From Atriophallophorus winterbourni (lineage: Eukaryota; Platyhelminthes; Trematoda; Plagiorchiida; Microphallidae), in the NCBI GenBank assembly GCA_013407085.1, contig JACCGJ010014017.1, forward strand, positions 1 through 64,000: a stretch of DNA of 64,000 bases, in the 5' to 3' direction. Both the position numbers and the translations under genes were made by a program. The notes beneath the pieces are model-generated. The model searched no databases, was not told the origin of the DNA, and was given only the letters and a program-made list of their open reading frames with translations. Numbering within the stretch: the stretch's first letter is position 1; the number at the start of each line of letters is the position of its first letter. Positions 6,108 to 45,666 of this stretch are shown piece after piece.

Positions 6108-6322
6108 GCATAGACCTGTCCGCTGTGTGCGTTGACTTATTGATTTCCGATCGATCACTCACTCACTCACGCGCCACGCTTTTAAACTTTGTCCATCGAT
6201 AATATAACACTGGTTTCGTTCACTAGTTCCGGTCGTTTGTTCTTACTGTTCTTTCGGGAATAAGTGCTTTGTGCTTACTTGTGAATATAACAACTGGCGT
6301 CGCGATTCACTGAACCTGTGAC

Positions 6323-7546
6323 ATGCTCAGCTCAGCTCGTGCTCCCGATCCGCTTTGGGATGATCCTACTGCTCGTCCAACTGCTGAAGAGTGGCAGAAT
6401 TTCAAACTATCTTTCAAGGATTATCTTAACATGATAACAATTTTCAATCCAACAATCAAGATGACCTGTGAACAAGAGATCGTCTTCTTACGTCAATACC
6501 TTGGACGTGAAGGTCAACGATTTTTCGAAGCCCAGAATCTGAGAACCAAAGCAACGATCAACGAAGTGTTCACTGCACTGGATAAATATTGGGGTTCCCG
6601 AGTGAATTTGTTTGTCACACGGTATAAATTTTCCCGAATTCGACAGGAACCTGCGGAATCATTAGATGCGTATATTTCGCGGTTGATCCCGGCAGTCCGC
6701 CTTTGCGAATTCAATGCAGTTCCCGCGAAGAAGGTAGAAGAAACCTTTCTAATACAACAATTCATTTCCGGCCTATCGGACGGCAGACTCCGGGAAATTC
6801 TTCTATCCGAGGATGCAAATAAAATTACTTGGGAACGTGTTCGTGAGATTGCTCGGTGCCGCACTGATATCATGGAGCAGAATAAATCGTTCTTTCATGC
6901 AAGTTCTGAGATATCACATGTGAAGCCAGCTTCTGCCCAACGTTCGAAATCATCGGCCATGAGCTGTTTCCGTTGTGGGAGTAACCAACATTTAGCGAAC
7001 AGTCCATATTGCCAAGCTCGCAAAGGCAAGTGTAACAAATGTGGTAAGCTCGGTCACTTTGCTCGTGTATGTCGGTCTCAAACAGTTTCTCAAGTTGATA
7101 CAAGTGACACAGACATGGTCGATTCTAATACAGCAACATCGGAAGCTGAACATATTTATGGCATTTCTAGTCACGAACTTACTACATGCTCTGCAATTGA
7201 ACCCAAATTACCTTCTTCTGATATCCGTACAGTACATTTTTGCTTGGGTGACAGAATGATAACTTTGCCTATGGAATTAGATTCAGCTTGTCCAATAACA
7301 ATCGTTCCGTACGAGTTTTATTGTACGCATTTACAGTCATTTCCTATTCAACCATCGAATTATGTTTTTGGAAGTTACTCGAAAAACCCTGTGCCCATTC
7401 TGGGATTTCTCAACGTGCCCTTATTTCTGGAAAGGGAGTTTAAATCCGTTGTTGCCGTTTACGTGTCGCACACTAACAGCAAACCGTTACTTGGTCGAAA
7501 TGCTATGGTATCGCTGCAAGTGACCTCTCCGCTTAATATTTCTACA
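6323..7546 (+). CDS. LTR-retrotransposon Gag with two CCHC zinc knuckles and aspartic-protease-like domain
   Basis: 408 codons open to the fusion point. Residues about 10-200 are a helical capsid-like Gag region (blocks [45 protein letters not shown]). Two zinc knuckles start near residues 214 and 236: [16 protein letters not shown] (C-X2-C-X4-H-X6-C) and [14 protein letters not shown] (canonical C-X2-C-X4-H-X4-C). From about residue 313 is a retropepsin-like fold. The active-site position reads LDSAC where DTGA or DSGA is usual, and the domain ends in [14 protein letters not shown], which matches the flap-end LLGR motif. No RT or integrase follows, because the frame passes into SRSF1. The ATG at 6323 was chosen as the first in the open frame, close after the leader. 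Intactness suggests recent insertion or selection. Confidence 0.8.
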
Positions 7547-7960
7547 ATGGCTAGACAGACTTACAAGATTTACGTTGGCAACCTTCCCCCGGATGTGAAG
7601 ACGCGTGATGTTGAAAGCCTTTTTTCAAAGTATGGTCCTATAGCCGAGATTGATCTCAAATCACGCCGTGGACCGCCATTTGCTTTTATCGAGTTCGAGG
7701 ACGAGTTGGATGCTTCGGATGCCGTTCGAGGTCGGGACGGTTATAATTTTGATGGTTACGCCCTTCGCGTTGAGTTTCCCCGCGCTGGTGGCGGTCGTTT
7801 CAATGGTGGCGGATTTAATTCCAGTCGACGTGGATTTGGTCGGGGTGGTGGTGGAAGTGGTCCATCACGGCGGTCGGAATTTCGTGTCGTTGTTAGTGGA
7901 TTACCTCCAACTGGAAGCTGGCAGGATCTTAAGGATCACATGCGCGAGGCTGGTGATGTT
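7547..7960 (+). pseudogene. SRSF1: SRSF1 (SF2/ASF-like) intronless 5' coding fragment, RRM1 to mid-RRM2
   Basis: 138 codons start at the normal SRSF1 methionine ([17 protein letters not shown]). They cover a complete RRM1 with RNP2 (IYVGNL) and RNP1 (PPFAFIEFE), the Gly/Arg/Ser linker, and the beginning of RRM2 with the family signature [15 protein letters not shown]. The reading stops abruptly after AGDV, where RTE DNA begins, so half of RRM2 and the RS domain are absent. SRSF1 is a nuclear SR protein acting in splice-site choice and mRNA export. The piece is in frame with upstream Gag-protease and contains no intron, consistent with capture from mRNA, although fluke SRSF1 may naturally lack introns here. 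It is not the functional host gene; any product would be a Gag-SRSF1 fusion. Confidence 0.85.
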
Positions 7961-9102
7961 GGCTCTCAACCGGTTCCGGTTTACAGCTTTACCACACTTC
8001 GCGTGGTATGTAAAATGCCATATGTTCTCAGCTAAAAGCGTGCTACGGAAGCAGAACCAAAGGAAAATGCCCGAAAGCGGGGAGCAAAGAACACACCTTG
8101 TTTGACGCCTAGGCGACTTTTTAAAGCTTCTGAAATGCCACCGTTGAAAATGCACGAGCCTTTCATGCCTAAGTGGAAACGAAATAAACGAGTCATAGCA
8201 AAAGTCTTGGAGGGGCAGCCTATCAGATCAAGCATTTTGAAAAGGACCCCCTGCGACCGTAGTCGAAGCCTTAGTAAATCAATAAAAACAGCGTATAATG
8301 GCATACGCTGTGCCCGACACTTGCTTGAAGTTGTCTAGGGGAGACGCTCATGTCAACGGTTGGATCTTTCTTGCGGAAGCAACATTTGAGATCGGAGGTA
8401 AATTCTATAAGCTTACAATTGCAGCCGTGATTGTATACTTTTAGCAAACAATTTGCCTACAACATTCAGAAGGAAGATTCCTCTGTAATTGTTGCAGACG
8501 CCTCTGTCACCCTTATTCTCAAATAGCATCATGATCTTTGTGTCTCGCATCTTTTGTGGGAATCCCACCTCCTGCCAGCACTGAAGTAGCAAATGGTGGA
8601 GAGGCTGTAATAATGCTGCTCTACCGCATTTGATGAGCTCAGGGGGCCTCTCATTCGCTAAGCGGTCGATTGCCTTATCGAGCTCATCAAGAGTAGAAGG
8701 GGTATCTAGATATTCAATGGTCGGCAACCGTTCGACATTTTCAAGTGCATGCGGTAGAACCGTACTGTCTCTAGAGTAAAGAGAGGAGAAGTGCTCTACC
8801 CATATCTCCATCTGTTGAGTTTTAAAGACAATCGGCTTACTAGATAAAGACATAATGGGAGCCGATTTAAGTTTGTTTGGGCCAATGGCTCTCTTGATCC
8901 CATCATACATAGCGTGAAAATTTCTGGTATCCGCAGCTTTTTGGATATTGAGGCTAACTTCAGTCCAATAGTCGTTTGTACATCGCCTTGCAGTCTGTTG
9001 GACCTTATTTTTAGCTGCTCTTAGAAGACGTAAGTTTTCATCTGTTGGCATATCTTTGAACCCCAAGAATGTTGAGCGTGTTTCATCCAGCACAGCAGTC
9101 AT
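7961..9102 (-). pseudogene. RTE-like reverse transcriptase, entry and palm region
   Basis: The minus-strand frame 9102-8413 carries the region before and at RT entry (ANERPPELIKCGRAALLQPLHHLL, then MLFENKGDRGVCNNYRGIFLLNVVGKLFAKSIQSRL). The palm follows at 8340-8040 in another frame with PLYAVFIDL, LFKMLDLIGCPSKTF and GVKQGVFFAPRF. The reading then continues in degraded form to 7961, where SRSF1 sequence begins abruptly. Frame changes lie near 8413 and 8040. This is the upstream half of the element whose C-terminal half is at 5114-6107. Confidence 0.8.
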
Positions 9103-16949: not shown

Positions 16950-18950
16950 GAATGCGACCAAAAATAACGAATTTACTGTATTTCTAATGAGGTTTACTAA
17001 TAACTCTATTTTCGATAGTGTTACGTGCTTATTGTGCAAAGTGATGAGAATTATATACAGTTACCAAATTGCTTTTCAATAATCAAAATCTAAGATTATG
17101 CGAATGGGCCGCGATCCTGAATTTTCCTACCCATACACGTTCAGTGCAGAGGATTCAGTTTTCAGGTCTTGTGATAGTTTGAAATATGGTCTACAATAAG
17201 ATCGTTCATTGTGTTATCTAGCTATGTTTTCCTCGATTATATATGGCAACCGGCTAATGCAAAATGTGATGTTTATAACCAATATTTGGTTCGTTAAATC
17301 GCTACTTTTTAATCAAATTTACTTCTATAAGTGATGCTAAACATGATGTTTAATTTCTCGCTTGAAATAGTTAAATATTTATCTTTCACTTTCGTTTATT
17401 ATTCTACATAACACACTAGTATCAATATCCGGGCAATGGACATCACTAGAATGGTTTAAGACTTTGGATTTCAGATCTCATTGACTTCATCATTTTTCCC
17501 GTCAATACTAGTACAGCGAGTGCAGAGAGTGTCCGGAAATAGTTCATTCAGTTCTATCCAGGTCAACGAGTGACAGCTGACAAACATTGGCTACTTATCG
17601 AAACATTCGGGTCATCGGTCTAAGAATAAACCACGTAACTTAACACTTTTCACACTGGCACATCGGTTGCAATTCGATTCATCCCTGAGGTCTATCATTC
17701 CAACACATTAATCCACGAATCTCACAACACAAGAGAAACACGATTGCTCATACGCGTTTATTAGACTCAAGGCAAGGAACTAAACGCACGACTATTTTAT
17801 ATAGACAAATGAACAACTTCAACACAGTCCTTAAATATATATGTCATGATTGTCAATTTGATCTGATTTGTTACTCGATTTTGTGGAAACAGGTTCACTT
17901 CAACCCCTCGACAGGCAATGCTCCTTTAACCATCCTTGACGAATCGGATATCTTGCGATTGCGTCTGACTTTGTCCATCTTCTTATGCTTTCGAGTATAT
18001 TGTCACTTCAAAATTTAACATGTTATCCTTCACAAACACGAATCATTGTGTTCTTGCGATTGTCGTCCTTAGAAATCTTCGATGCATCCTGCTCTTTTGG
18101 CTTATCGGAGGTTGGTTTTCTGAATAGCATCCGTAAGTTCGTGATTAGCCCTCATCGGTAAAGAACTTTGCATTCCAAACCTATGCTAACGACACATGAT
18201 TGTTCGGTATAAATGTTTTTCAAAGTGGCTGTTGGAGCCACCTATCATAATATCAAAACTCAAACAATTCTCATGTAAATAACCCGAGAAGCTGTTAATA
18301 TATAGTTTGGAGAGTATATGAATTTTACTAATATAAATAAACTGTGGAAACTCTATGGTCACAACGGAATCTAGAAGTGATGTTCAACTTCGCAGAATTG
18401 CAGTTGTGAGCGAATGTCATGGTGCTTTGAATAACAATCTTTTACCCTAAAAGGAAGAAATAAACAAACATCTTCATAATGGCAAGTTAGCAGCGTGATT
18501 GATACGTTCCTAGAGTAGAAGCATATAATCGTTTTTAAATTAATACGAAAGGCTTTAAGGTTATTCACGGAACTATAATTTCCTATAATAGACTAGCACA
18601 AAAGCAGAGCTTCAAATTTTTCGTTTTATTTTCCTTTAGCGCTGAAGTCTGCAAGGTGTTCCACATTTATTCAAATATGAAGGAGTAAATAGTGAACACT
18701 TAGCAAACTATTTTTCTTTAAATTTTGCTACTGGTTATACAATACAGCAATTAAATATTGTTTTTAATTCAATGTTCTCGACACAAATAAAGTATATTGA
18801 GAAACGTGATTGCAAATTGTACTATAACGTGTTTAAATGGTGCACACGTATATGGTTGAAAACAAAATTTGCATGGCCATATTTGGTCATCCCCTCGCAC
18901 ATCTACGCACAGTTTTTCACATTTTCACATATTTTGCAATTTAAGGTCAA
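16950..18950. other. Intergenic region upstream of the micro-exon gene; contains dispersed repeat family D
   Basis: No gene is supported. About 17640-18190 resembles 58420-58930 in order of blocks: a CCACGAATC(C/T)CACAA motif, then a segment with TTTTATATAG, then a GTGATTAGC(C/G)CTCATCG block. It is likely a dispersed repeat pair. 18200-18950 is AT-rich and adjoins the putative promoter at 18959. Confidence 0.4.
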
Positions 18951-18958
18951 CTGAATAC

Positions 18959-18965
18959 TATAAAA
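18959..18965 (+). promoter_or_regulatory. Putative TATA box of the micro-exon gene
   Basis: TATAAAA lies 54 bases upstream of the ATG at 19019. With a typical spacing of 25-30 bases, transcription would start near 18985-18995, giving a 5' UTR of about 25-35 bases. The region is AT-rich, so the match could be chance. Its position directly before a signal-peptide exon makes it credible. Confidence 0.5.
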
Positions 18966-19018
18966 CCAGTGATAAAATCATCCTCCATTACACGTAATAT
19001 CGTAATATTAAATTCAGC

Positions 19019-19167
19019 ATGCTTAAACTCAAAATTGTATCCGTATTGTGTGCCATTCTAATTGTCGGTGAGTGCTAGAAATTCATGAAAGATAGTAACT
19101 CCAGATCTTTTTATAATAACGTTATTTTTATGTGTTCGTTTCTTACAGACACTGGAGCAACAAACCC
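19019..19167 (+). CDS. Signal-peptide exons 1 and 2 of the micro-exon gene
   Basis: Exon 1 coding part (49 nt) starts at the first ATG after the TATA box. It has a basic n-region (MLKLK) and an eleven-residue hydrophobic core (IVSVLCAILIV), ending at donor GTGAGT in phase 1. Exon 2 is 19 nt between TTCTTACAG and GTATGT; it completes an Asp codon and adds T-G-A-T-N and part of a Pro codon, leaving phase 2. Small residues in TGAT suit signal-peptidase cleavage. Splitting the leader over a short first exon and a micro-exon is typical of MEG genes. Confidence 0.82.
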
Positions 19168-22100
19168 GTATGTGCGACTTCAATTAATCATCATTTCCAT
19201 ATAATTGCTGTACTTTCTATTAATTGCAAATCCGATCGAGTTTATCAAATTGCATTTCGGTATTAGTTTTGTTATTTGACGAAAATTTACATTTGATTTT
19301 GATATTCATAATACTTAGATAATCATCAAAGCATTCTGTATGAAATTATTTCTGTTACTGATAACTCTTAACATGAATCTTGGTGTATGAAATTTAGCCA
19401 GGAAATTTGAAAGAACATAGAATAATAAAAAACCTTTGTCACAACCTAAATATGTAGGACGAACAGTTTTGGTTATATATGAAAACAGTGAATGTTAGAC
19501 CAAAGTATTGTGGTGCTCACATCCTCATCCCTTACACACCACTACGGGTTTCAGGCTGTTTGCCATCGTCAGGTGGAGACAGTAAGATCAGGTTCAGTGA
19601 GCCTTGAATTTTTTTTAGGACAGTTTTGTGTTCAGTATGTGAATAAATAAAGATATATAAGATAAAGCTTCACCGGTAGATTGAGTATTTGTACTGATAA
19701 TTCGGAAAGCCGCTATACTTGTAGTCTAGAATTCTTTAAAAAATTAAGAAGAGCAAAATTGTTAAACTCATGCAAATAATCGTTTTTCATGATGCCTCAT
19801 ATATGGTGACTATATGTTCGAAGATGTAGTGCAAAAACCATTGTCGGATATATCACACTATGAACGATATGTAAAATACCGTCAGCCATGTTATTATAAT
19901 TTGCTGTATACTACTTAACACATTTTTCGATTGATAAATTGATAATTTTTTTATTTTGTTTGATTCGACGACAAGGGAAATGAGATTTGAATTTTTTCTA
20001 TTAATTATAGCCTACAAAACGTATTGAAAGCACAAAATGCGTGAGTATTCTCAAATTTAGCGCACATCTGCTTCCATATTCATCAACTAATTATGTTCAA
20101 ATGTTTCTTCACAGATTTTACTTACGTAAACCGCTGTATGTCGTAAATATTGTTATCTGTTTTAACTGAAAGAATTCTCTCAACGATGGTCATACTATTG
20201 TTCATATGATTCATAATTCTGATTCTGAGTATCAATTTCGGAGCTGCTATTGTCAGTTCTATCAGGGCCATCGCGCGTTTTACCGCGAATAGATTAACGT
20301 TTAGCATTCATGAATTTTTATATCGGTTTGTTCAAATCTTCGTATATCGTGGTGCTCACATTCAATTCATTTAAGCACTACCGGTATCTGGTGGATTGCT
20401 GTTGTCCGGTTAAGACAGTAGGATCAGCTTCACTGAGCCTTCACACAGTGGTATAGTTGTGAACATGAAGATGATGATGCATATTTTTCAAGGTTAACTT
20501 ATGAAAAGCTTCCAAATCTTCATATATTTACAATTATTTGTTTTCAGCATTACAAATCAACATGAATTGTGAGTCTCCTGTCTCCATGGAGATAGTTCGT
20601 TATATATTTCTTTTCAATATTGGAAACGAAATTTTAATGGAAGAGGTTTCCTAGCAGTTTATTATTTATTTATTCATACTTATCCGACAGTCAACAATAT
20701 TTTACGCGACAATTTTAACGTGCAATTAGCATTTGGAATCTTATTGTTCTCCTCCTAATTCCAGAACATGTAATAACAAGCGATATTCGGCTTCCGTTTT
20801 CTTATCATATGTATATATAAATCTTCCTAGGATAACATTATTACCGCAGTAGAAAAACAGACAAGTTTACGCCGGGCAACAAAATTATTTCGCCGTGAGA
20901 ATTACACCATAAATAGACTCAATTTTTCGCAAAATTTGTTTGAACAAGCGAAGGCCAAAATGAATTTGTTATATGGCACACGAAGCAAACTCAAGATTTC
21001 GAATCAGTATTATTTCAGATGGCAAAGTAATTTAGCGAAAGAAATAATACATAATGATAATCGAATTTTAAGCGCAGTTTATGTAGAAGCTTCTAATGTC
21101 AAAAATACAGTTGACGTGAATAGAATTAACTATTAATCTTGCAATTAAAAATGGTAGGAAATGCTTCGTGGTCGTTACCTTGATAAAGACTTCATATAGC
21201 CATGAATGAGTATTAACGAGCAAATTAAAACGTTGTGAATGAGAAGGACAATCAAAATTAATGAACAGATAACGCTTCAAAAAAGTTATATTTGTATGCC
21301 ACTGTTATATAGAGTTCTTACAAAGAACCACGATGTTCAAATACAGAATCACAAAGTGATTCCTGGCCAAGCGCTCGAAGCGCATATAAAAGACCAAAGT
21401 AATGTGGTGCTCACATCCCCATCTCTCACACACCACTACCGGTTTCACTTTGATAAAAGTACAGCGTTTAGAATGAGACAATTTTTCATCAAACACATTA
21501 TTCGTTTCCTACAACAATAACAACGAGTCAGAATTATTGACATGCTGGACACAAAAAATAATCCGCTGATATCATTATTAAAAATAACGTTCCCTAATTT
21601 GAGGGTCCATCACATTTTTGTAATGAAGTCATCTTCATTTTTGCATGCTTAGTGAAAAATGCCTTGTATGATATTCTTACACTTTAATTGCAGCATTGTA
21701 AAATTGAATGAAGTGTGAGTTGCAACAAATGAATTGAAGCAAATTAATATACATTCTATACATCTTTATTTGATATGACTAGCGCATTGTTCTGAAACAA
21801 ATGATTTTACTAGAAAATGCATTAAAAGAACTAGTGAACATGTGAAGATGTAACGTCAAACGTTTCGGTAATAAACATATTTGAATCAATTTCTATATCA
21901 CTTGTGATTCCGAATAACCACTAAATAAGCAATTTTACAATAATTTTCTAATCTGTTTCCAGAAAAGCGAAAGTGTATGAAATGTGAGTCATTGGCAAAT
22001 CTGTAAACATAATCTGTATATATTTTCGGACCCTGTCATAACTAGCAAGTTGTTTCTGCGAAACCATCACGCAACATATTTCATATTTACTGGAAATGTA

Positions 22101-25100
22101 TCATTATGGCATACTAATTGAAATTTATTTTTATTCGTGTAAAAATTGCTATAATTAACTATTTTCCGTTCAATCCATAGTACCAAAAATTCAGCTTTGT
22201 GAGTTATTATTTGAAATCTCATATTTCACTTGTGAATTTTGAATTTGTATCAAGTGACTCATTTGCGCTTACCTGATTTTACCGTAATTGTTACACAATA
22301 TTCACACGAATCTGGGTAAAATTAATTGGCTAATTAGCTACATAAATTCAACAGGACCTCTTGTCGAGCGGTAATTAAATTAGGTCAGTGTTATCGATAT
22401 AAGCATTTCAGCGATGCATTAACAACGTATGCTTGTATGTATTAATAAGTTCGCATGTGTGTGACGTGGAGATATCACCAAGCATTGGGCGACTTGGTAT
22501 GTGCTCACCCAAATTATGAGTTGCTTTTTCATATGTACGAGAGTAAACACTGGAAATTAATTCACGAAATTCGAATACAACCAGCGCAATAATAACCGCA
22601 GGTCAATTATATGAGAATTTGGATGCCGCCAGATCCGGAATATCCGTACTCGAAATTTATATTTAAAAATTTAAAGTTAGATACTTTGAATCAAATGCTG
22701 CTCACAGAACAAAAAATAATTGAATGAACCGCAACTTTGGAACCTTTAGAATAAATTTACACCACATAGAATAATTTTCCTTTTTTGTGTATTCGATTTT
22801 AGTTCAAATGCTAATACCGCGCAGTGAGTTTCATTTCGTGAAATTCAATCATCCCGATATGTTCGAATATCATGAAATTATAATAGTCTTCCGATGAACA
22901 CTACACATTTCTCTTGAACATAGATAGATGATTGAATGCAAGAAAATATCTAAGTGTACACGAATGGATCGATTCGGAGAAAATCTAATTATTTATTGCT
23001 GAACAGGTTGTCGTGTGATTTAAGGCATATTTGTTTCCTGTTTTCACTGTTATTTCGAAACCTAGCATTGTGTTCTTGATTCATAAATGTATTTCGCAAA
23101 CAATTTATCTTTTAAATGACTTTTTTACAGAATTAACGCACTTTACAAACGGTAATTATATTAATCACCATATTAAAATAAGATACGACATTCTGGATTA
23201 GTTAAAGCATATCGCATACATTTCAGATTTTCTGATGACGCAACCACGTAAGTATACAAACTTTCCTGTGAAATTACAATACATAATGATGTAACAACTT
23301 TTTATATATTTTGTCCACACTTTCATACTCATAACACAGAGGAGAAGAAAATTTGAAATTGTGAGTTTCCTAGTTGCATCTATTCAAAATAATTGATAAT
23401 ATAGATTGGTATTCTATCATGAAAATGTCTAATATACGAATTAGAACGCAAATCAACAAATAATTGTACATTTGAAAACGAAATTAAATCTAATTCCTCG
23501 TTGATTAATTGTTGAACTATTTCAACTTTATTTTCCAGAATGGGAATGCAGAAAGATTTGTGAGTATCTAATTTCATCCTTCCACATTTACGTTTCATTT
23601 GCTAATTTCTAATATGAATAACCGATAAATGTTCACCATAAACGGTATATAGCAAAAACGCAATAATAAATCACGGGCTTAACTTCAATCTTCACGCAAA
23701 ACATTTCAACAGCAAGCTTCTTCAAAATAATCAAAACCGCATTGGAAATGTGTGGTACAAATCATACATCCATTACACATTATGACCACCCGCGTTGTGC
23801 GTGTGGTCATAAGAAATTGCACATTTGTTTTTGACACCCTTATCTAACAGTTGATTAAAAATGTGAAACGATTTATAATCTGTATTAACAGCATGCAATC
23901 GGAAATTACGAAGTGAGTTCAACTCGATTTAAATACGAATTTACGGCTAAATAACAATTCGGACTGCTCTTTCTTCAACATATTCTTCCACGCATTGTAA
24001 ATAACACATTTTTTAAAAAAACCTCATTCGGTACTACATGAAGGTATTTGGCAGTCCGTTGGATAAAAGTTGACTTATACTAATTAATTACGGCTACACG
24101 TCTTCTAAAATTTACAAATGGTGGTTAAAGAATTAAATTAGATTGATAGGTAAATTATTATTTTTTTCTCGCAACGATCAGCAATTAGTACGATCATGCA
24201 CGAGGTTAAGGTGGAATTATATGAGAATCGATATAAATTTCCTACGTTAATCTCACGATTGGCTACTCGATAATACTGTCAAAATGCTTATATCCGGGAC
24301 ATGAAAGAACGATCATATTTGGCAAATTAAGATACAATTCTGAAAAAATGATATTCGAATGATATGTTGGAATCTGCTTTCGTCAGTGATGTGTGAGCGA
24401 TCCAGATTGCGCGATAAAAACGTGTAACATACGAAAGACACGCGTTGCGTGCAATTAGCGTTTGCTAAACCATAACTGTTTTAGTAAGACTGCATCACGA
24501 AAACCATTATGAATCCAGACTACTTTAAAACAATTCCTTATCATAGGTTTTCATTGTAGGCTAGTAATTTTCACATTGGGTTTAAAATTTGTATGCTTTT
24601 TTGCAAATCGGTTAATGATTTTATAACTTTGATTTAGAATTGAATCGATGGGAAACTTGTGAGTTAATTTTTCATCGTATGACTTTAATTTCATTTTCTA
24701 TATTTTGTTAGAATGGCTCTATTTTATGAACGATGTGTCTAGATTAGGCAATGTACTGTTATTCGATGGGAATTAAATAAACTTTTGCCTATACGTAGTT
24801 ATGAACACATTCCTTTCTGTTAAGATGGGCCGAATTAAAATTAATTTCGGTGATCATTGGTCTAATTAAATAACTATGAAAAACATTTCATGTTCGCATC
24901 ATCTACCAATATATGGAAGAGAAAAGAACGTGGGATCCATATGCATAACTATTTATTGCTTTAAGTGCGATTTTACATCCGCACAATTAATTTCGTCATT
25001 TTTTGGACTCATCAGATTTGTTATATTAGATATTTTACTTTTTTAATCCACTCGATCGATAAGCGTGGGAAGAAACTAATTCTAAATTGGGTACTTTTTA

Positions 25101-26241
25101 TTTGTTCTCACTCAATCGAAATCTATATTTTGCATTCTAGCACTACGCTTGATATACAGTAAGCATTTGTCATTAGTTTACATTTTCTGGCGTTTTATTA
25201 TATTCTACGTTATAACATGCCAGATTTTGATAGCTGAATCTTCCGATAATTTGCGATAGTTTGAATATTGGCAAATAAAATTGTCTAATTCGATTATTCC
25301 CGGATTTTCTGATTTGGTATACTGAACAAAATTGATTCGTATGATGAACGCGAAGTAACTTTCAAAATTTCACTCACAACAGTACAATAAATTTCACATA
25401 TCAAGCTGGTTTGAATACTGCAATTAAAATGATGCGTTCGTGTAAGAATCATGTCACTTTATAATTAATGTTATAGACCGTATTTGTATGTTTTTTCAGT
25501 ACACACCACAACACTAGTTCTGTTTCGTTTGTACTCATCATATAAAAGGATCACGATCAGAATCTGTATGCCGTAAAAACACCGGACATGTGTTAGACAA
25601 AGCGACTCTTGGGTACGTCTAGAAAAACAAATAGTTTTCAATCGCAATACCAAGCAATGCGCATATGAATGCGGTAAACACATGGATTTGAACAAAATAT
25701 TCATACTTGTACGTATTCTATTATACGCAACCCATAGTCAACAAATGCACATCTACATGCACATTGTTGGTATATGTGATTAAACCTGTTGTTTGCACTA
25801 AAAATTTCCAATATTAGACTCCATTTTCTCGCACCGAATACTAACATGTTATTTAAGCATGAGTATCTAAGCATGAGGATAACATGAATATACTAATAGC
25901 ATTGAACCTTAGAAAGAAAATGAGGAGATTTCAAGGTTTTATTCGACAGATCACTTTTTACAACATGAATTAAATTGTCCAGCATTTACGCTAACTATAC
26001 CAACGTTAATATTAAGCGCTCAATGGATTTTAAAGAACAGTTTTATGTGGTTATATCATAGTTTTTTTTCTATTTTACGCAAGCTATGCCCATGAACTAC
26101 AGTCAATGTAAGTTTATAGTTTTGATAACATTACTTCAAAGTAAATGTTTCTTATTTGTGAACAAATTATTTAAAACTATCTGTGTACGTATTTGTTACG
26201 ATTTGTTTTATAATTTGAACACTTGCAGAAAAGTGTTTTAA
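19019..26241 (+). CDS. Micro-exon gene (MEG-like) encoding a 126-residue secreted peptide
   Basis: Seventeen exons join into one open frame of 381 coding bases: 19019-19067, 19149-19167, 20011-20040, 20548-20568, 21694-21714, 21963-21983, 22181-22198, 22803-22823, 23131-23151, 23227-23247, 23340-23360, 23539-23559, 23892-23912, 24638-24658, 25141-25158, 26084-26107 and 26229-26241 (TAA). All introns are GT-AG; most donors are GTGAGT. Exon 1 encodes most of a signal peptide (MLKLKIVSVLCAILIV) and exon 2 (19 nt) the cleavage region (DTGATNP). Exons 3-16 are 30, 21, 18 or 24 nt, all multiples of three and all phase 2-2, so any can be skipped without frameshift. The mature part lacks cysteine and recognisable domains. 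This matches the micro-exon gene architecture described in schistosomes, whose products are secreted from the oesophageal gland and tegument. The family is not identifiable; tissue and function are unknown. Further micro-exons may be missed. Confidence 0.85.
19500..19610 (+). repeat. Dispersed repeat family B, copy in MEG intron 2
   Basis: It contains TGTGGTGCTCACATCC, a CACACCACTACGGGTTTC block, a GCCATCGTCAGG block, then GAGACAGTAAGATCAGGTTC and AGTGAGCCTTGAA. Matching blocks occur at 20345-20440, 21390-21450 and 63722-63745. It is an interspersed element with no coding capacity recognised. Confidence 0.65.
20345..20440 (+). repeat. Dispersed repeat family B, copy in MEG intron 3
   Basis: The order matches 19500-19610: CGTGGTGCTCACATT, then GCACTACCGGTATCTGG, GTTGTCCGG, and AGACAGTAGGATCAGCTTCA with CTGAGCC. 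It is more diverged than the first copy. Confidence 0.6.
21390..21455 (+). repeat. Dispersed repeat family B, truncated copy in MEG intron 4
   Basis: It contains AGACCAAAGTAATGTGGTGC, CTCACATCCCCATCTC and ACACACCACTACCGGTTTCA, the 5' half of the family only. It lies between the micro-exons at 20548 and 21694. Confidence 0.6.
23780..23812. other. Perfect 10-bp inverted repeat (potential stem-loop) in a MEG intron
   Basis: TTATGACCAC (23780-23789) and GTGGTCATAA (23803-23812) are exact reverse complements separated by 13 bases. The hairpin ends 79 bases before the micro-exon at 23892. Intronic structure could influence exon inclusion, but palindromes of this size also occur by chance or as transposon traces. 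Confidence 0.5.
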
Positions 26242-26631
26242 TATATTGATAGAGTAGGAGCCCAAAGGAAATCCACAATAGAATATTGTATTTCCAAGTT
26301 CACGTAAATTGAGAGCACTTGTGCAATTGATACTAGATATCCCGGAATCTTTTGCTCCTGTAGCGAAACTCCAGAAAATCTCATAAACATTTGGAGTTGT
26401 GCTCCGAATAGAGCGGATGTCAGTTTGTTTTGAATGATGGTATTTTTGGATTTTTGTTTTTCTTCGGATTTATTGCGAACTCAACGGAGATGAACTACTT
26501 ACGTGTGAAATTTCGTCGTCAGATGTATTTTTATTCATAAAGTGTTCATTTTTGTTGAACGTGACAAGGATAAACATATATTAGACTTCAGATAAACTGG
26601 TCAATTTCCAAAGTGATAAGTGAATATACAG

Positions 26632-26637
26632 AATAAA
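26632..26637 (+). terminator. Putative poly(A) signal of the micro-exon gene
   Basis: AATAAA occurs 390 bases after the stop codon at 26239-26241, with another about 80 bases further on. No closer canonical hexamer was noticed. The region is AT-rich, so the hexamer could be chance, and the true 3' end is unknown. Confidence 0.35.
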
Positions 26638-27179
26638 CAGGATAATATTAATTGAAATTAAGAGAACAGCATTTTTCATTTATTCAAGCAAATTTTCGTG
26701 AAAATATTTCAATAAAAGCATAGCCTAATATTTTGAGCAACTGTTTGAATTAAAAGACTCAACTTGTTTCTGCCTGCACGCAGCATTGAAATACAATGGC
26801 CGTTTTGAAGAGAATCAAAGAAATGTTCAACATGGTTGATTTTCCATATCATTTTGGTTTAGTGTCCATCTGAAATTCCAACGATTGTGTGAATTATATA
26901 ATGAGTGCTGATGATAAAATGGCTTTTATGACAATACAAGTTTCCAGACATTTCTATGTACAGAACTGGTAATGGATATACGGAAATGACGGAACTGTTT
27001 GTGACAAATTTATATTCGGAGGCCCAATTTTAATATTATATTTTGTAGCTGAATTTTGTCATGCTTCACTGAATAATTGCAATAAGCAGACATACTTGGA
27101 GATTACTTGCTGTTTGAACTCCCCAGATTTCAGCAGTATTAACAGGATCCGAATGCGCTTAAAAAGATGTTGCACTTTC

Positions 27180-27365
27180 ATGCCAGTGTTGGAAAAGGTT
27201 GGTATATATGCAAGTACAGAAGCACAAATTGTTTATCTTTCTTTCACGGTTTCAAGCGCATGCGGATCATGATCTTACTGCCACTACCTGCTGAGTGCAA
27301 ACAGCACGAAACCGGTTAAGGTGTGTATATTTTATGGAAATGCATGCAAATAAGCTTTATTGTTC
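27180..27365 (+). repeat. Dispersed repeat family E, copy 1 (pair at 60342-60490)
   Basis: It shares with 60342-60490 the ordered blocks TGCCA(G/C)TGTTGGA, AAGGTTGGTA, TTTCAAGCGCATGCGGATC and TGGAAATGCAT(G/A)CAAAT. A further 10-bp inverted element GGGTTCAAACCC lies just downstream near 27366. Confidence 0.6.
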
Positions 27366-30136
27366 ATGGATATGGGTTCAAACCCAGTCTACATGAGTGT
27401 GGGATCATGCGATTGAACAGGTTGGTCGTACAAACATTATCATTCCGCGAAATACAAGCGCAACTTGTTTAAATTACAAATAATTGTCACATTTTACTTC
27501 AATAATTGCATACATTCATTCTGCTCATTTTAAAAGTGTATTTATGATTGCAAACATTTATAAGATCCATTTTATGGCTCTTCACCGATTACATCCGCGA
27601 ACACGACAAGCGTTATTAGATATTTATATGAAAATGATCGAGTGTCTTATAACAGAATATACCATCAAATATACACTTTGGTGTTCTTTAACGTTGATGT
27701 CTACTGAAGTTTACATTATTTGTATGTTTTTATTGGACAGGCGATAGATCGACTGAAGGCTGGGGATTTGCTTTGTCTCCCAATGAGGTTATTTCCCCGA
27801 CCGTTAAAAATGATAGTTTAAACGAATCTTATAATCGAGGAATATAAACGTGTGATAATACAAATGAAGCAGAATGAGATGGAAAGAAGCTGTTCTGTGG
27901 GTTTTATTAAGAGCTCCGTTTGCACGTTCGTTTTGTCGTGTGGGTTTAATTCAAAGCTTGTTCGGTACTTTTGTTCGGTTTAAATTGCGATCAATGACGA
28001 TAGACGGGGGATGGAGAAAAACAATGACCACGTGCCGAAACTACACAGGTTTAAGCAGAGTAAATGAAAAGATAAGGGTAATGGAATGTTTACACAATAA
28101 AGTTGCCTAGAGACGCTAGTTTGCTACATGGTCGCTTGTCCGTATAATTCTAACGATAACTTGATCCAAGTGCTTCAGCTCCTAATTCGCACTTACTAAA
28201 CAGCAATGCATATTTCGTTTAGGTTTTATGTAATCAATCTGTGAATGCTGAATGTGCATGAGTGTCACACTCTGGTCCAATTTATCTACACGGTGAACCA
28301 CCGTGTTCATGGCAAGCCATACGTGGGTACTGTATACCTAGTCGAACAGAAGTACTGAGTGGTCAATAAGACTCAGAGGAGCGTGGAAGTTGGTAGCTTC
28401 CAAAGATTATTCTCCCCATGCTTATATCAAATCCAAGACAAAGGTATGATCAGAACCAATGCTCTGAGCGACCTCGAACTTTAATGTAAACGTACATCAT
28501 TCATTCGTATTATTTAATCTACACGTTATATACTAAAATTTCTTTCACATTTTCATGCATACCGTAATCGTGTGGTGTTGTATATTAATAAACATTGTAA
28601 CCTTAAATACTTCAGTACTCAAAACTTGATTCTTTTAAATCGTATATCCACAGCACATCCATAGATGACTTGTTTAAAAAATGATGTGTTGCTTTCTGAA
28701 CAAATGTGGATGAAAAAATATCCTCAGTTGCATGACATTTACTCACATACGTACCAGGCTGAAGAAAATTTATTCCGCGAAATAGATGACATGTTAAACT
28801 TTGAAGCTTTACTTTATTGACCACCGACTTAGCGTGTTTGTTACATTGAAAGTCAGGGTGAAAAAACTTTGCAGTGTATTTGGTATCATGTAATCGTTTG
28901 ACATAGACGGAATAATAACTCAAACAAACCTACCGTATTTTGCTAGCATAATGTTGCCTGACTAATGCATTTATCGCTGTTGAATTAAAAGGTGCGTTTT
29001 GGGACATAAGCTGTGAGTTCCAACATAACATTATAATTGCGATCCCGGTTAGTTATATTAAATTTATACAATAAGAAATATTTAAATGATATCATTTACC
29101 GGAGGAACAGGTAATGTTTTAATTGAGATTTTTGTCCCCTGTTCTAAACCACCATCAATAATCTATTTAAGCAAAAAGAAGCAGCTCTAGCTGGCACAGT
29201 CTAACGTTTCGAATGATGGATATATATGTTTTATTGAAACAGTCTTCGACATAAATTACTGAAAACTGTTTGATGCATAAATCCATATATATGGGCGATT
29301 CATTCTTACGTTTACTGTTAAATTCCGGGATCTAGGGGATATACTACTAATCCTTTTGGGTAGTAATGCTACATGATGCGGCGGAAATGTGAGACACTCA
29401 GCATGTTCGAGTGCCAAGCTATCCAGTAATAACGAGGTGGCAAAGCAGACAAGAATGTTCCAATACGAATATTAAGGTTCAAATTTGATACCACTACACT
29501 TGCCCATTTTTAATAATGCGTTTGAAACGGCTCTTCATAAAACGTTTGTTCAAATTGAGTAAGGATACCGTTTTTAGTTTGTACCAACGTCCGGATGATG
29601 ATTCTGATATATGCTTCAGAAACTTCGGCTGAAATAACCACCTATCCAAATACGTAGAACAAGAAATCATTCCGGTGGAGTTGCATTCTTTGTGATATAG
29701 CCCATTGAGAATGCTCCGCTACGCCTTTTGTTCTCGTTATTTATATATTGAGATTTATTTAAATCTGTTTTACTTAATCACAGTAATAAGGCCGCAGATT
29801 ACCTGTAAGTTTTCAAAATTGATTGTTTACACGATAAACTTCATTTCGTGATTAACTGTGAAATTTACAATATTCCTTACACAACAGTCGTAAGTAAACT
29901 GGCATTAATTTAATATATTTGATCTGCGTAAATAAACTTTCATTCAAATAGACAGTTTGTATGAACAAACCAAATTTATAGAAAAACTGACTAAATCAAA
30001 GATGGTAATTAATTAAGACTTAAAGAAATTTAGTTGGGAAGTCAAGAAATCAATGCCTGCAGGATTACAAGCTGAAAATGTTTTCAGTATTGTGCATGTA
30101 AATGAATACAAGCATATGAAAACTTCTATAAAAATA

Positions 30137-35549: not shown

Positions 35550-36580
35550 AATATACATTTCGGATATTCAAGTGGTTTTGATGATATACAGGAAATATAT
35601 AGCGATTTTTCCGGTTACCAGTTTGAAATCTGATCTGTGCGTTTGCAGTTTGTACGTTGTCCAATCGTCGTGAGTAAATTTCCCAACAAGATGTGTTTCG
35701 ACGAAAACCATGTTGCGCTGCTGAAAAAGTCCTTTACTTTGGATGCGCTCATATAATTTTCAAGATACAAGTGAGCAGCGTGAATGGTCTGCAATTTGTT
35801 ACGTCGGATCAACAGCCAACCTTTTTATTTGGTCTTATCACAATAGCTCTCCATGCTGATAGTACGCAACCGTCGGTAAGGTTTCGGATGAGAAACTCAG
35901 CTAGACGGTTTGAAAGCTGTCTTTAACACGCACGAAAAAAACTGATGTAATGTTGCATCTTCCGCTTATTTCTTCGATTTTGGTCGCCATATGTGGGAGT
36001 CATCAACGACTTGGTCAATCATTGATTCAGTTAAAGGTTCGATGAGTGTGATAAAACAATATGCGAGAATTGCTATTTCGGGCTTAACAATTGAGGGTAA
36101 AATCTAGCAAGAGCATATGATGTCTCTCGAATTGTATCAGTCAATCTTTGTTCCGTCAAGAACGGAAAACCCGTGGTTTCACTCTGGTTCTTTCATCCAC
36201 AATTTTCTACAGTATTTTTGGATTATATTCCATTCGTTCAACCATTGGCACTTTTGTTTGTGTTGCCAAACGAACGTGATCATTCTGATTCGTATTCTGC
36301 GAAATGGAAAATCAAAGAAGTAGAAAGATCACAAGGAATCGCCCTGGCTCGTCTTTCCAGGAAATCCATTTTTGTATTCTGCTACGAACAGAGAATCGAA
36401 AGGTGCGGACATGTTTGCTGGGAATAAATCATGAGTTTAATTTGATTTGATTCTAAAAGTAGTTTATTGATGGAATTTATTGTGTATTTAAGTCTCTGAA
36501 ATAAAGATGGACCTCGTTTAGTTCACACAGTGCTTCTCTGAGTCTCCAAAATTCGCAATTACGGATGACACGCGTCTTGT
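35550..36580. other. Intergenic DNA, no supported gene
   Basis: Only short frames in several registers, none with recognisable motifs. The segment may contain decayed retrotransposon DNA continuous with its neighbours, but I cannot support boundaries. Confidence 0.3.
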
Positions 36581-41220: not shown

Positions 41221-41242
41221 TTGATTATCAACGGCTTTCAAT

Positions 41243-42601
41243 ATGGGTAAGACCAGGAAATCTGCAAATGTATGCAATACAGCAGTGATTGCAAAAAGGA
41301 TCCAAGAGAATCGTAGTGGCATCCCTAGGGCTTCTGAGGGGACACAATCCGCCGGAACTAAAATCGTTAAAACTAGTGACAAGAAGTTTACCTGTGGTAA
41401 TAGCCAATGCTCTCGTCCCGTAAAAGATGGCATAGAATGTAGTAATTGCTCTACGTGGTACCATCCTCCGTGTTCAGGGTTGTCAACTAAGGAGCTGAAA
41501 GAACATTCAGCAGATGAAAACAAGTTGTGGTTTTGTGTGGCCTGCCTTGCAACTCCACTCATGCGTTACATGACCAAGCAAATAGTTGAATACAAGCAGA
41601 CCTCAGAAGCAACTCAGAAGCGCTTAGATCTTCTCGAAGCCAAGTTGTCTTCTCTGTTCCAATCCATCACTCCAACCGTACCCAACGTAGCACAAGTAAG
41701 CTCACTGATTCCGACATTCGCTACTACTGCTGCTTCTCTGCCGATCTGCACTCGTTCTTCATTTACCACCAACAAATTGTCTCCAAATTCAGCAGAAAAC
41801 TATACTCATGTGAATTTCACAGCAGTGAAGAAAATAGCCCCGGAGGCAAGCTCCCGTTCCATAGAGGCGTTAACCGTGATATGCACCAATGTGCCGGAAG
41901 CGACTTCACCCTGTTTCAAAACTCGACAAGCGCAAGATGCGCAACAATGGCGGACCGTATGTGAGTCATTGAAAATTTCTTGAGAGGCTGAGAATATTGT
42001 GCGTTTGTCCAGACATCCGAAATCAGTACATATTGGCGAGCCTAGACTGCTGCGCGTCACGCTTAAATCCTTGGTAGATGTTGAATCCGTTTTGCTTTCT
42101 GCATACACCTTGCGCAACGGAACCTCACCCATTCGTATATTTCCGGACGTGTCATGGATTGAACGGCAAGCTAAGAAGGAAGTGAGCTTCAATTGGAAAC
42201 AAGATAACGACAAGAAAAGCATCTTTATTCTTGGAGTTCCGGAACTAAATGACGCGGATGCCAATAAAAACACCATTCATGACTGCGAACAATGGCGTTT
42301 CATACAACAACAAAGTAAAATAATTGATACTTTGACTATTGGTTTGAAACGATTGCCTGCCTCACCTACCTACAAGGGCTCAGGGCCCCGTATACTCAAA
42401 GTGACTCTCCAATCCGAATCCATGGTGAGCGATGCGTTACAAAGTTGGTATCAACACAAACGTTTTGCGCCTTCCGAGATCCGCCTCCGTTCTGCCCTTG
42501 ATAAAACGCGAAGTGGCAAACTTCAAAGTGGTCCTATCGGTGATATATTTTGTGCCTCAAAAAACTTAACTCCTCCGGTCCTTTCAGGATCGGCGCAATA
42601 A
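41243..42601 (+). pseudogene. CR1-like ORF1 with PHD zinc finger and coiled coil (one internal stop)
   Basis: A single frame of 453 codons is interrupted only by TGA at 41981-41983. Residues about 50-105 form a PHD finger with cysteine/histidine spacing C-X4-C-X8-C-X2-C-X4-H-X2-C and then W-F-C-X2-C near the end (from FTCGNSQC to LWFCVAC). A coiled-coil segment follows (KQIVEYKQTSEATQKRLDLLEAKL region), then a basic nucleic-acid-binding-like domain (RLLRVTLKSLVDVESVLLSA). PHD-bearing ORF1 proteins are known from CR1-group LINEs, where they act as RNP chaperones or packaging factors. The start at 41243 follows a region without longer in-frame extension. The ORF2 frame begins about 50 bases before this stop. 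Confidence 0.82.
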
Positions 42602-45600
42602 ACAACCACAAAAACTGTGAAGACCCCGCTCTACACCGCGAAAGCCTGAAGTGTTTCTACACCAACGCCCAGGGTCTGCTCAGTAAACTTCCTATGCTTC
42701 GTGCTCGACATGCGGCTCGGCATTTCGACGTTATAGTTGTAACTGAGACATGGTTAACACCGTCCGTTACAGATGCCGAAATCTTGCTTGATGGTTGACT
42801 GTCATTAGAAAAGATCGTCCCACCAAGGGTGATGGAGTTATCCTGTACCATAATTCTTTGCTCCACTGTACAGAAATGTCTCATATTCGTCTACAAACCA
42901 TAGATTCGCTCTATTGCCGTCTGCAGCTCAAAAACAGAGACTCTGCTTTACAGGCTGTAATCTACCGTTCTGTCTAGGCCTGGGCAACCTGACAGTATCC
43001 TAGCCCACGTGCAGTCTCTGTGCGGCACTTTGCCTGGATCAGGCTTGTGCTTTCATACCATACCATGCCATACCGTCCACCAAATGCCCAACCTGTTGTT
43101 GATATCGGTATACTATTCTCTTTGCGGTTCGCCTTATCAATGAAGCACAGTCATATCTTATTGATGGGAGACTTCAATTCGCCCAGTTTGCGTGTTGAAC
43201 CTGCACGATGCTTTTGCTTGGGAGCTAAATGATCTGATAGAAAGTCATCCTTTGTACAGTCACGTCACGGAACCCACACGTTACAGCGGAAATGACACAC
43301 CATCTTTACTAGACCTCCTACTGACGAACGAGGTATTGATGATTGAGGAAGTCTCGAGTGAACCTCCGTTGGGTAAAAGCGATCATGTTGTCCTGATTTT
43401 TGACTTCGTGTGTTACGCTAACTACCCGGATCAAGACGATATCAGGCTGCGGACGGTTACAAATTACGATACTCTCTACAATGTTGTTGCCTCCAATAGC
43501 TTTGACTTCATGCTAGAAGGTGACTCGGATTCAACTTGGCGCAATTTTGTTACCAAATGGCACCAATTAATTGAGCTTTCTTCAGTTTCAAGACCGGTTC
43601 CCCCCAAAAATGCCGGCACACTCATCCGGAGTAGAACCCGTAAATGGATGTGCCGCAGAAATGCCGCCTGGACTGCGTTTAAGTTGTCACAACTGCCGAA
43701 GGATTGGGAGCATTATAGAAAATTACGAAATCATTGCACTGATCTAGTGCGCCAGGATAAATTAGATCACCAAAGTAAAATTACGGCTCGATTCCTGGAA
43801 AATAACAAAATGCTCTACAGATTTGTCAACAAAAGGCAGAAGGTGCAGACTGGTATCCCCTCCCTTAGTACTAGTGCAGGCTCCACGTCTACATCAAAGG
43901 AAGCAGCAGCAGTCTTGAGATCACATTACATGCCCATTTTCCAAAACCCCTCCCTAATCTTTCCTTTGTTTTTGTCACCATTACCTCTAAACTCTTACAC
44001 CATGTTTTCTACTAACAGAGTCCGAGAAAAAATCATGCGACTTCGACTCAACTCCTCACCGGGTATCGATTGCATAACGCTAAAAGCATTGCGAGCAGTT
44101 GTTGATCAACTTAGCGAACCGCTTGCGGTGTATTTTCAACGACTCATGGATAATTCTGAAGTCCCTGCTGGTTGGAAGGAAGGTATCATCACTCCAATCT
44201 TCAAGGGTGGAAATCGCAGTGATCCCACCAATTACCGTCCAGTCACTCTCCCTTCAGTGCTGTCCAAGGTGATGGAAGCAATAGTTGCCGACGAAATCAT
44301 GGCTTTTGCGGACGGCTTCAATATTATCGCTGCAGAACAACATGGATTTCGTAGAGGACACTCATGTACCTCTAACTTACTTTTGGCTCGGGATTACTGG
44401 ACCAAATCTGCTGATGAAGGTAAAGGAGTAGATGTTATTTACTTAGATTTCTCTAAAGCCTTCGACCGCGTTGACCATGTAATACTGCTGAAGAAGCTGC
44501 TGTCATTCGGTTTACCATCTGTATTGCTTTCCTGGGTAGCTGCATTCCTGCGTTCGAGAACTCTTCGCGTGCGTGTTAAACAGACCCTTTCAGAGCCGTT
44601 CCCAATTCAGTGTGGATTACCTCAGGGTTCCTTTCTTGGCCCGCGTCTATTTTAGTTGTTTATCAATGACATTGGAGGATACGTGAAATCACCGTTTCTC
44701 CTATTTGCGGATGATATCAAGATCTGGCGCTCCATAGATTCGTCTGACGATACGTCAAAACTGCAATCCGATCTAGACTCACTGCATGAATGGTCAACGA
44801 TCAATCGCTTACCATTCAACATTGAAAAATGTCACGCATTACGTGTTCGCTTTCCTGGCGACCCTAGGTATATTCTAGGTGGCAAGATCCTCACTGTCAC
44901 AACGCAAGAAAAGGATCTCGGAGTGATCGTGCAACATGACTTGGGCTGTTCTGATCAGTGTAAAAGTGCTTCAACCGTAGCTAATAGAAACGTTGGGCTC
45001 TTGAAGCAGGCATTCGGAACCATCGATTCACGTCTCTTCCCGCTTCTTCTTCAGGCGTACGTCAGGCCACACTTAGAATATGCTATTTCTGTCTGGAAAC
45101 CATGGTTGAAGCGTGACCAACACGCGTTGGAACAACCACAGAGACGTTTTACCAAGCTTGTCAAGGGGCTTGGCCTCGCCAGCTACCAAGAACGTCTAAC
45201 AACACTGAGATTGTTTCCAACGGATTACCGTCAACTCCGAGGCGATCTGATCCTTACGTATCGAATATTGACGGATGAAAATCACACATGTAGGCGAATG
45301 CTAGAATTGGCACTGCCCTCTGGAAATCGTGGTCATCCCCTCAAGCTAGCGCATCGGCACAGTAGACTGGACTGTCGGAGACAATTCTTCGCCATTCGGA
45401 TTACTCGTGCTTGGAATGCCCTGCCCATTCTGTCGTTTCTGCCCCATTTCCCACTATTTGTAAAGAACGCATTGACATTCATTTCTATAACGCATTGCAC
45501 AATTTTTAATCATACTTTTTGTTATTATGATCTCTGTGATGCTGCACCATTATTTCTCTCTCCACAGCGTTTACTTCCCAATCAATATGAATTACGTTTT

Positions 45601-45666
45601 TCCTCTCTGGACTGTGGACATTTTTCCCCACCCAATGTGTTAACTATCCTGTGGTTATTCTATTAA
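42550..45666 (+). pseudogene. CR1-like ORF2: endonuclease + reverse transcriptase, nearly complete but broken
   Basis: The endonuclease starts with FYTNAQGLLSKLP and VIVVTETWLTP (catalytic Glu), continues with LLMGDFNSP (catalytic Asp/Asn) and ends with PPLGKSDHVVLIFDF (catalytic Asp-His). The RT follows: LNSSPGIDCITL, WKEGIITPIFKGG, DPTNYRPVTLPS, IYLDFSKAFDRVDH, GLPQGSFLGP and catalytic FADDIKIW, then the C-terminal DCRRQFFAIRITRAWNALP. Defects are a frame change near 42795, a SINE-like insertion at 42969-43070, a frame change near 43190 and an in-frame TAG at 44653-44655 just before FINDI. The C-terminal frame stops at 45666. The low number of lesions indicates a fairly young copy. Confidence 0.88.
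42969..43070 (+). mobile_element. SINE-like element with 6-bp target-site duplication
   Basis: A 102-base insertion starting TCTGTCTAGGCCTGGG and ending in a CATACCATACCATGCCA tail interrupts the CR1-like endonuclease between VIYR and PPNA. TACCGT at 42963-42968 is repeated at 43071-43076, a clean target duplication. It includes a small hairpin (GCCTG-GAT-CAGGC) near its 3' end. With the duplication it adds 108 bases, so the frame is preserved. This insertion defines the ends of the short form of the family. Confidence 0.85.

What the first reader, a model, noticed from the sequence alone, without database searches (positions are those of the whole stretch)
19019..26241. A 17-exon micro-exon gene for a small secreted peptide
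Exons of 49 (coding), 19, then 14 exons of 18-30 nt and a 13-nt coding end join through 16 GT-AG introns into one open frame of 126 residues with an N-terminal signal peptide. Every junction keeps the reading frame and no stop occurs before the terminal TAA, which is very unlikely by chance for so many independent short segments. Known: schistosome micro-exon genes (MEGs) have this layout and make splice-variable secreted proteins. I do not recognise the peptide family, so this may be a lineage-specific, undescribed MEG. It would escape ordinary gene finders because no exon gives an ORF of useful length.
Basis: partly seen in the sequence, partly recalled or inferred. Interest (0 to 1): 0.95.

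Follow-up and report, generated by a model that had tools for sequence, protein, structure and literature searches.

The report
Fluke gene built from micro-exons
This stretch of flatworm DNA, probably from a non-schistosome fluke, appears to hold a gene cut into 18 tiny exons that together encode a small secreted protein unlike any in the databases searched, a layout best known from schistosomes and some tapeworms.

Summary
Fifteen consecutive exons, eleven of them 21 nt, have lengths divisible by three and phase-2 borders. Eleven 21-nt candidates lie in 7.4 kb against 0.53 per dinucleotide shuffle (maximum 5 in 1000); all 11 perfect-donor candidates are divisible by three. Every subset of the 15 exons stays open to the native stop. 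The product starts with a strong signal peptide; the mature part (113 residues, no Cys or Trp) has no relative found among 5.8 billion proteins, Pfam or PDB sequences. Reverse transcriptases in the window point to a digenean fluke, probably not a schistosome. Best reading: a new micro-exon gene (MEG) for a possibly splice-variable secreted protein. It meets a published structural rule for MEGs and mirrors schistosome meg-8.2 (17 exons, 15 micro-exons), but four Schistosoma mansoni MEG motifs tested are absent. Whether it passes the aphid bicycle-gene classifier depends on a phase convention I could not settle. No RNA evidence was available; splicing, variation and function are inferred.

The parts
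18959..18965 (+). TATA-like box, 60 nt before the ATG (putative promoter; weak evidence)
   Evidence: only TATAAA/TATATA match in 18701-19030; such a match is not rare in AT-rich DNA
19019..19067 (+). exon 1 (49 nt coding): ATG and signal peptide MLKLKIVSVLCAILIV
   Evidence: 0 of 330 other ATG-led 20-codon open stretches of 12-36 kb, both strands, reach its hydrophobic maximum
19149..19167 (+). exon 2 (19 nt), probable signal cleavage region (A20/T21, by the recalled -3,-1 rule)
20011..20040 (+). exon 3 (30 nt, phase 2)
20115..20135 (+). exon 4 (21 nt, phase 2)
20548..20568 (+). exon 5 (21 nt, phase 2)
21694..21714 (+). exon 6 (21 nt, phase 2)
21963..21983 (+). exon 7 (21 nt, phase 2)
22181..22198 (+). 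exon 8 (18 nt, phase 2)
22803..22823 (+). exon 9 (21 nt, phase 2)
23131..23151 (+). exon 10 (21 nt, phase 2; weakest donor of the 17, gtaatt, score 5.6)
23227..23247 (+). exon 11 (21 nt, phase 2)
23340..23360 (+). exon 12 (21 nt, phase 2)
23539..23559 (+). exon 13 (21 nt, phase 2)
23892..23912 (+). exon 14 (21 nt, phase 2)
24638..24658 (+). exon 15 (21 nt, phase 2)
25141..25158 (+). exon 16 (18 nt, phase 2)
26084..26107 (+). exon 17 (24 nt, phase 2; acceptor AAG instead of YAG)
26229..26241 (+). exon 18, coding end (13 nt) with TAA; its acceptor scores lowest of the 17 (4.5); 3' UTR presumed to follow
26632..26637 (+). AATAAA, possible poly(A) signal; another at 26711

Best explanation
A protein-coding micro-exon gene (MEG) of a parasitic flatworm, most likely a digenean outside the schistosomes. 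Read from the sequence: exon 1 encodes a signal peptide; 15 consecutive symmetric phase-2 micro-exons, eleven of them 21 nt, add six to ten residues each; a 13-nt exon closes the frame. From intron 2 on, every junction splits a codon after its second base, so the residue there is set mainly by the upstream exon. Inferred: the protein (about 13 kDa after cleavage) is secreted, perhaps from a gland or the tegument, and acts at the host interface; exon skipping can make variants that differ by whole blocks without frame loss; sequence turns over quickly, so only the gene architecture is recognisable.
For: Exon chain far beyond chance, no comparable chain elsewhere in the window. 32,768 of 32,768 subsets of the 15 exons stay open to the native stop; 0 of 120 novel skip junctions makes a stop and 25 of 120 change the junction residue. 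Signal-peptide core above 330 of 330 comparison stretches. Meets a published MEG rule (at least 7 exons, at least half of them under 70 nt and divisible by 3, runs of at least 4; PMC7653826, passages): 15 of 18 exons, run of 15. Schistosome meg-8.2 has 17 exons, 15 of them micro-exons of 12-33 bp (PMC12998952, passages). Flatworm context: reverse transcriptase with best named hits in Dicrocoelium (45% over 97%) and further hits in Paragonimus (42%) and Echinostoma (38%).
Against: No transcript, proteome or homologue: 0 hits at E up to 10 (6 word-sharing candidates among 5.8 billion proteins). No conservation or dN/dS test was possible. Four published S. mansoni MEG motif patterns, simplified to regular expressions, are absent. 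Helix periodicity is not significant (P 0.08-0.55). Absence of stops at skip junctions is not surprising by itself (about 14% by chance for exon ends). The donor of exon 10 and the acceptor of exon 18 are weak. Twelve of the 15 exons are also open in phase 1, so the phase rests on exons 1 and 2. Half-trained matrices recovered only 2 of 8 and 3 of 7 exons. The SRSF1-like copy discriminates taxa poorly: 74% to Schistosoma rodhaini, but 68-69% to carp and eagle over a shorter stretch. Species not identified; the genome search did not complete.
Confidence: 0.84

Rival explanations
1. The micro-exon run is real but belongs to a longer or different transcript: further 5' or 3' exons, spliced-leader addition at the AG just before the ATG, or a different last exon, so that the 133-aa product is not the main one.
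For: An acceptor-like AG lies directly before the start (candidate at 19018); the acceptor of the 13-nt terminal exon is the weakest of the 17 (score 4.5); the TATA-like box is not beyond chance (my estimate).
Against: Signal peptide at one end and an in-frame stop at the other give a self-contained product; no further chained micro-exons in the window, which does not test for ordinary exons.
Confidence: 0.2
2. A bicycle-type effector gene, as in aphids and scale insects, rather than a flatworm MEG.
For: Many micro-exons, about 17 exons on average, nearly all internal exons in one phase (called phase 2), signal sequence (PMC9168663, passages). With phase counted as here, the published coefficients give probability above 0.9999 against a cutoff of 0.72.
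Against: With the other phase convention (GFF) the same coefficients give 3e-9; the paper says the exons 'start with codon position 2', which may mean the second base, whereas here they start with the third (searches did not settle it). Fluke-like reverse transcriptases; no Cys in the mature protein and no CYC-like motif; the paper reports no candidates in three outgroups of aphids, phylloxerans and scale insects.
Confidence: 0.03
3. Chance string of splice-like sites in AT-rich DNA, or a decayed gene.
For: AT-rich region (about 33% GC); no RNA or homologue evidence.
Against: None of 1000 shuffles reached the observed value on five of six measures; the sixth, the loosest count, was equalled by the maximum (34). 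17 of 17 junctions in frame with no stop argues against decay.
Confidence: 0.03

Closest known systems
Schistosoma micro-exon genes (MEGs), especially meg-8.2
   Same: Signal peptide, 10-20 exons, most of them short and divisible by three; meg-8.2 has 17 exons, 15 of them micro-exons of 12-33 bp
   Different: 11 of 15 symmetric exons are 21 nt here, against 15 bp in the vast majority in S. mansoni (PMC10526429); four S. mansoni MEG motif patterns absent; no sequence relative found; probably another trematode family
Cestode MEGs (Hymenolepis microstoma 52, Echinococcus multilocularis 35; PMC7653826)
   Same: Meets the structural definition used there
   Different: The shared motif of the H. microstoma Chr6 family does not resemble this N-terminus by eye; no alignment was run
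Aphid bicycle genes
   Same: Many micro-exons of one phase, about 17 exons, signal sequence
   Different: Fluke-like context, no CYC motif, no Cys in the mature protein; phase may differ by one codon position
Trematode helminth defence molecules (Sm16/HDM)
   Same: Small secreted trematode proteins discussed alongside MEGs (PMC5825161, section 25)
   Different: No significant amphipathic periodicity here; no database hit

Membership tests
Micro-exon genes (MEG, structural class) | At least 7 exons, at least half of them <70 nt and divisible by three, run of at least 4 (PMC7653826) | tested here: met
   18 exons, 15 of 18 micro, run of 15; predicted, not transcript-based, exons
Micro-exon genes (MEG, structural class) | Symmetric exons removable without frame loss | tested here: met
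   32,768 of 32,768 subsets of the 15 exons open
Micro-exon genes (MEG, structural class) | N-terminal signal peptide, secreted or membrane-anchored product | tested here: met
   hydrophobic core above 330 of 330 comparison stretches; no trained predictor was available, secretion itself not shown
Micro-exon genes (MEG, structural class) | Alternative splicing producing protein variants | not testable with these tools
   no RNA data
Schistosoma mansoni MEG sequence families | Motif after the signal peptide (FL-hydrophobic-hydrophobic-F-X6-W) or red-clade motifs (CGGL..G; C-X-H-X-C; CLY..D) (PMC10526429) | tested here: not met
   four simplified patterns absent; no Trp at all and no Cys in the mature part
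Aphid bicycle genes | Gene-structure classifier above 0.72 | tested here: inconclusive
   >0.9999 or 3e-9 depending on phase convention; the passages seen do not settle which applies
Aphid bicycle genes | CYC motif(s) | tested here: not met
   no C-Y-C-like pattern; some divergent bicycle homologues also lack it
Aphid bicycle genes | Aphid, phylloxeran or scale-insect genome | tested here: not met
   fluke-like reverse transcriptases; species not identified

The most novel reading that the evidence does not exclude
Micro-exon genes for secreted proteins are a shared architecture across parasitic flatworms rather than a schistosome and tapeworm speciality, kept while sequence turns over beyond recognition. 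Phase-2 junctions and near-uniform 21-nt exons make each exon an interchangeable block of about seven residues with a hydrophobic pair at many joints, a gene logic that aphid bicycle genes resemble independently.
Probability: 0.25. Interest if true: 0.75.

Novelty: new member of a known kind. Interest (0 to 1): 0.55.

Why it matters
A 2021 review still calls MEGs apparently restricted to schistosomes (PMC8293314, passages), while a tapeworm genome paper counts dozens in two cestodes (PMC7653826, passages), and MEG-4, -8 and -9 relatives were not found in fasciolid, opisthorchiid or cestode transcript sets (PMC5825161, section 23). A clear case in a probable non-schistosome fluke would help to close that gap and would argue against a strict link between MEGs and blood-vessel life. 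The protein search found nothing here while a splice-structure scan did, so fluke genomes may hold more such genes. A comparison with aphid bicycle genes, once phases are put on one scale, would make convergence of gene layout in secreted host-interface proteins testable.

Tried and rejected
Heptad/coiled-coil idea: 21-nt exons suggest seven-residue helical repeats, but helix-period power (P 0.079 and 0.31), windowed hydrophobic moment (P 0.55 and 0.46) and within-exon position bias in the 11 seven-residue exons (P 0.09) are not significant. A later, post hoc test finds the two residues at each of 16 junctions more hydrophobic than the rest of the mature chain (0.43 against -0.19, P 0.001); it was chosen after looking, so it is a lead only.

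Exon duplication as origin: the repeat finder in 18.0-27.5 kb (minimum 30 nt) shows copies of an interspersed repeat in introns and three weak two-copy families of 31-32 nt, but no repeated exon modules.

A second MEG in the window: none found; isolated candidates at 29784 and 35649 do not chain.

Relatives: no protein hit; 0 Pfam families; the only PDB sequence hit was E 0.27 to a tape measure protein, judged chance. Rfam: 0 matches in the window. The bacterial-type promoter scan over the start region is not informative for a eukaryote.

Finding that the SRSF1 copy separates taxa poorly, I lowered the main confidence from 0.86 to 0.84.
Full report
What is there. Reading 18.4-27.2 kb and listing short AG...GT segments with strong splice signals gives a chain of 18 coding exons on the + strand: 19019-19067 (49 nt), 19149-19167 (19), 20011-20040 (30), 20115-20135 (21), 20548-20568 (21), 21694-21714 (21), 21963-21983 (21), 22181-22198 (18), 22803-22823 (21), 23131-23151 (21), 23227-23247 (21), 23340-23360 (21), 23539-23559 (21), 23892-23912 (21), 24638-24658 (21), 25141-25158 (18), 26084-26107 (24) and 26229-26241 (13, with TAA). 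The CDS is 402 nt, 133 residues plus stop. Introns are 74-1125 nt.

Is it more than chance. In 18901-26300 there are 11 candidates with a perfect GTRAGT donor and a pyrimidine tract, and all 11 are divisible by three; 1000 shuffles average 0.73 and 0.24, with maxima 5 and 3. There are 11 candidates of exactly 21 nt (shuffles 0.53, maximum 5) and 16 of 18-30 nt open in phase 2 (1.5, maximum 7). The loosest count of all candidates, 34, was equalled by the shuffle maximum (mean 16.6). The criteria were set after seeing the region. A both-strand chain scan of the window recovers exactly the 15 symmetric exons as the best chain, and a single exon at best elsewhere, with splice matrices trained on this gene; 12 of the 15 exons also chain in phase 1. 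A half-trained version with a strict threshold was weak: 2 of 8 and 3 of 7 internal model exons recovered, one non-model candidate on the same strand, 1 and 2 on the other strand, and 20 and 19 in the rest of the window, of which 3 and 1 were 21 nt.

The product. Exon 1 encodes MLKLKIVSVLCAILIV, whose hydrophobic maximum is reached by 0 of 330 other ATG-led 20-codon open stretches between 12 and 36 kb on both strands. A cut after A20 fits the -3,-1 rule (recalled). The mature part would have 113 residues, 13.0 kDa, computed pI 7.9, no Cys and no Trp; the protein has one N-glycosylation sequon, N115. No relative was found: 6 word-sharing candidates and none at E up to 10, 0 Pfam families, one chance-level PDB hit. 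The protein search needs shared five-residue words, so distant relatives would be missed.

How it may work. From intron 2 on, every intron is phase 2. Each of the 15 exons can be dropped without frame loss; 32,768 of 32,768 subsets run open to the native stop, and of 120 novel junctions 0 makes a stop and 25 change the junction residue. The split codon takes two of its three bases from the upstream exon, which explains the low number of changes. Stop-free junctions alone are not remarkable (about 14% by chance from exon ends). Exon skipping is possible in principle but not shown; for S. mansoni meg-8.2, 1 of 10 clones skipped an exon and the authors judge the full-length protein likely predominant (PMC12998952, passages). 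A helical-repeat model is not supported. A hydrophobic pair at junctions (P 0.001) is post hoc.

Whose genome. The reverse transcriptase at 43165-44655 has its best named hits in Dicrocoelium dendriticum (45% over 97%); Paragonimus westermani (42%) and Echinostoma caproni (38%) also appear, as does a metagenome-assembled bacterium (45%). The SRSF1-like segment is 74% identical to Schistosoma rodhaini, 71% to Taenia and 69% to Macrostomum, but also 68-69% to carp and eagle over a shorter stretch (120 listed of 883), so it helps little. Window GC outside 12-40 kb is 41-46%; the Paragonimus genome paper gives 43.3% and calls it comparable to related trematodes (PMC6329441, passages). I conclude flatworm, digenean likely, non-schistosome likely; the species is unknown.

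Compared with what is known. A published MEG rule is met (PMC7653826, passages). S. mansoni MEGs have 10-20 short exons, in the vast majority 15 bp, and shared motifs (PMC10526429, outline and section 5 part 1); four motif patterns tested are absent here and 11 of 15 symmetric exons are 21 nt. A 2021 review states that MEGs seem restricted to schistosomes (PMC8293314, passages), which the cestode counts contradict. MEG-4, -8 and -9 relatives were not found in Fasciolidae, Opisthorchiidae or cestode transcripts (PMC5825161, abstract, sections 17, 19, 23 and 25, and passages). In the listings of my MEG literature searches (open-licence papers only, most listings capped) I saw no title or abstract reporting a MEG in a non-schistosome trematode, and the Paragonimus westermani genome paper has 0 mentions of micro-exon, microexon or MEG in its main text; I did not open most listed papers, so this is not proof of absence.

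Aphid bicycle genes. They share many micro-exons, about 17 exons, one dominant exon phase and a signal sequence (PMC9168663, passages). The published coefficients give a probability above 0.9999 if phase is counted as the number of codon bases before the exon, but 3e-9 by the GFF convention. The paper's phrase 'start with codon position 2' leaves this open. The resemblance is therefore of general layout; whether the phase is the same is unsettled.

Verdict. A well-delimited micro-exon gene prediction, a new member of a known structural class in an apparently under-explored lineage, without detectable sequence relation to known families. Transcript evidence is the missing piece.

Noticed in passing
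6314-8035 (+): One open frame joins a retroelement gag-like part (zinc knuckle) to the start and first RRM of an SRSF1-like splicing factor; similarity ends soon after 'EAGDVG', within the second RRM: a possible transposon-host gene fusion or partial copy.
   Followed up: partly
about 12000-40000: A lower-GC stretch (32-38%) around the micro-exon gene, between flanks of about 41-46% GC. The retrotransposon-like frames that I recognised lie outside it, but no frame inside it was searched. Schistosome MEGs are reported in TE-rich regions (PMC8293314).
   Followed up: no
19497-19553, 20345-20381, 21391-21447: Copies (73-91% identical over 37-57 nt) of a short interspersed repeat in the same orientation inside introns 2, 4 and 5 of the gene; an inverted relative (76%) lies at 27265-27327.
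   Followed up: no
29784-29804 and 35649-35669 (+): Isolated 21-nt segments with perfect GTRAGT donors and good acceptors downstream of the gene; they do not chain and may be chance.
   Followed up: partly
41225-45666 (+): LINE-type element in several frames: a PHD-finger-like frame (below Pfam's cutoff) and a reverse transcriptase whose best named relatives are in Dicrocoelium dendriticum.
   Followed up: partly
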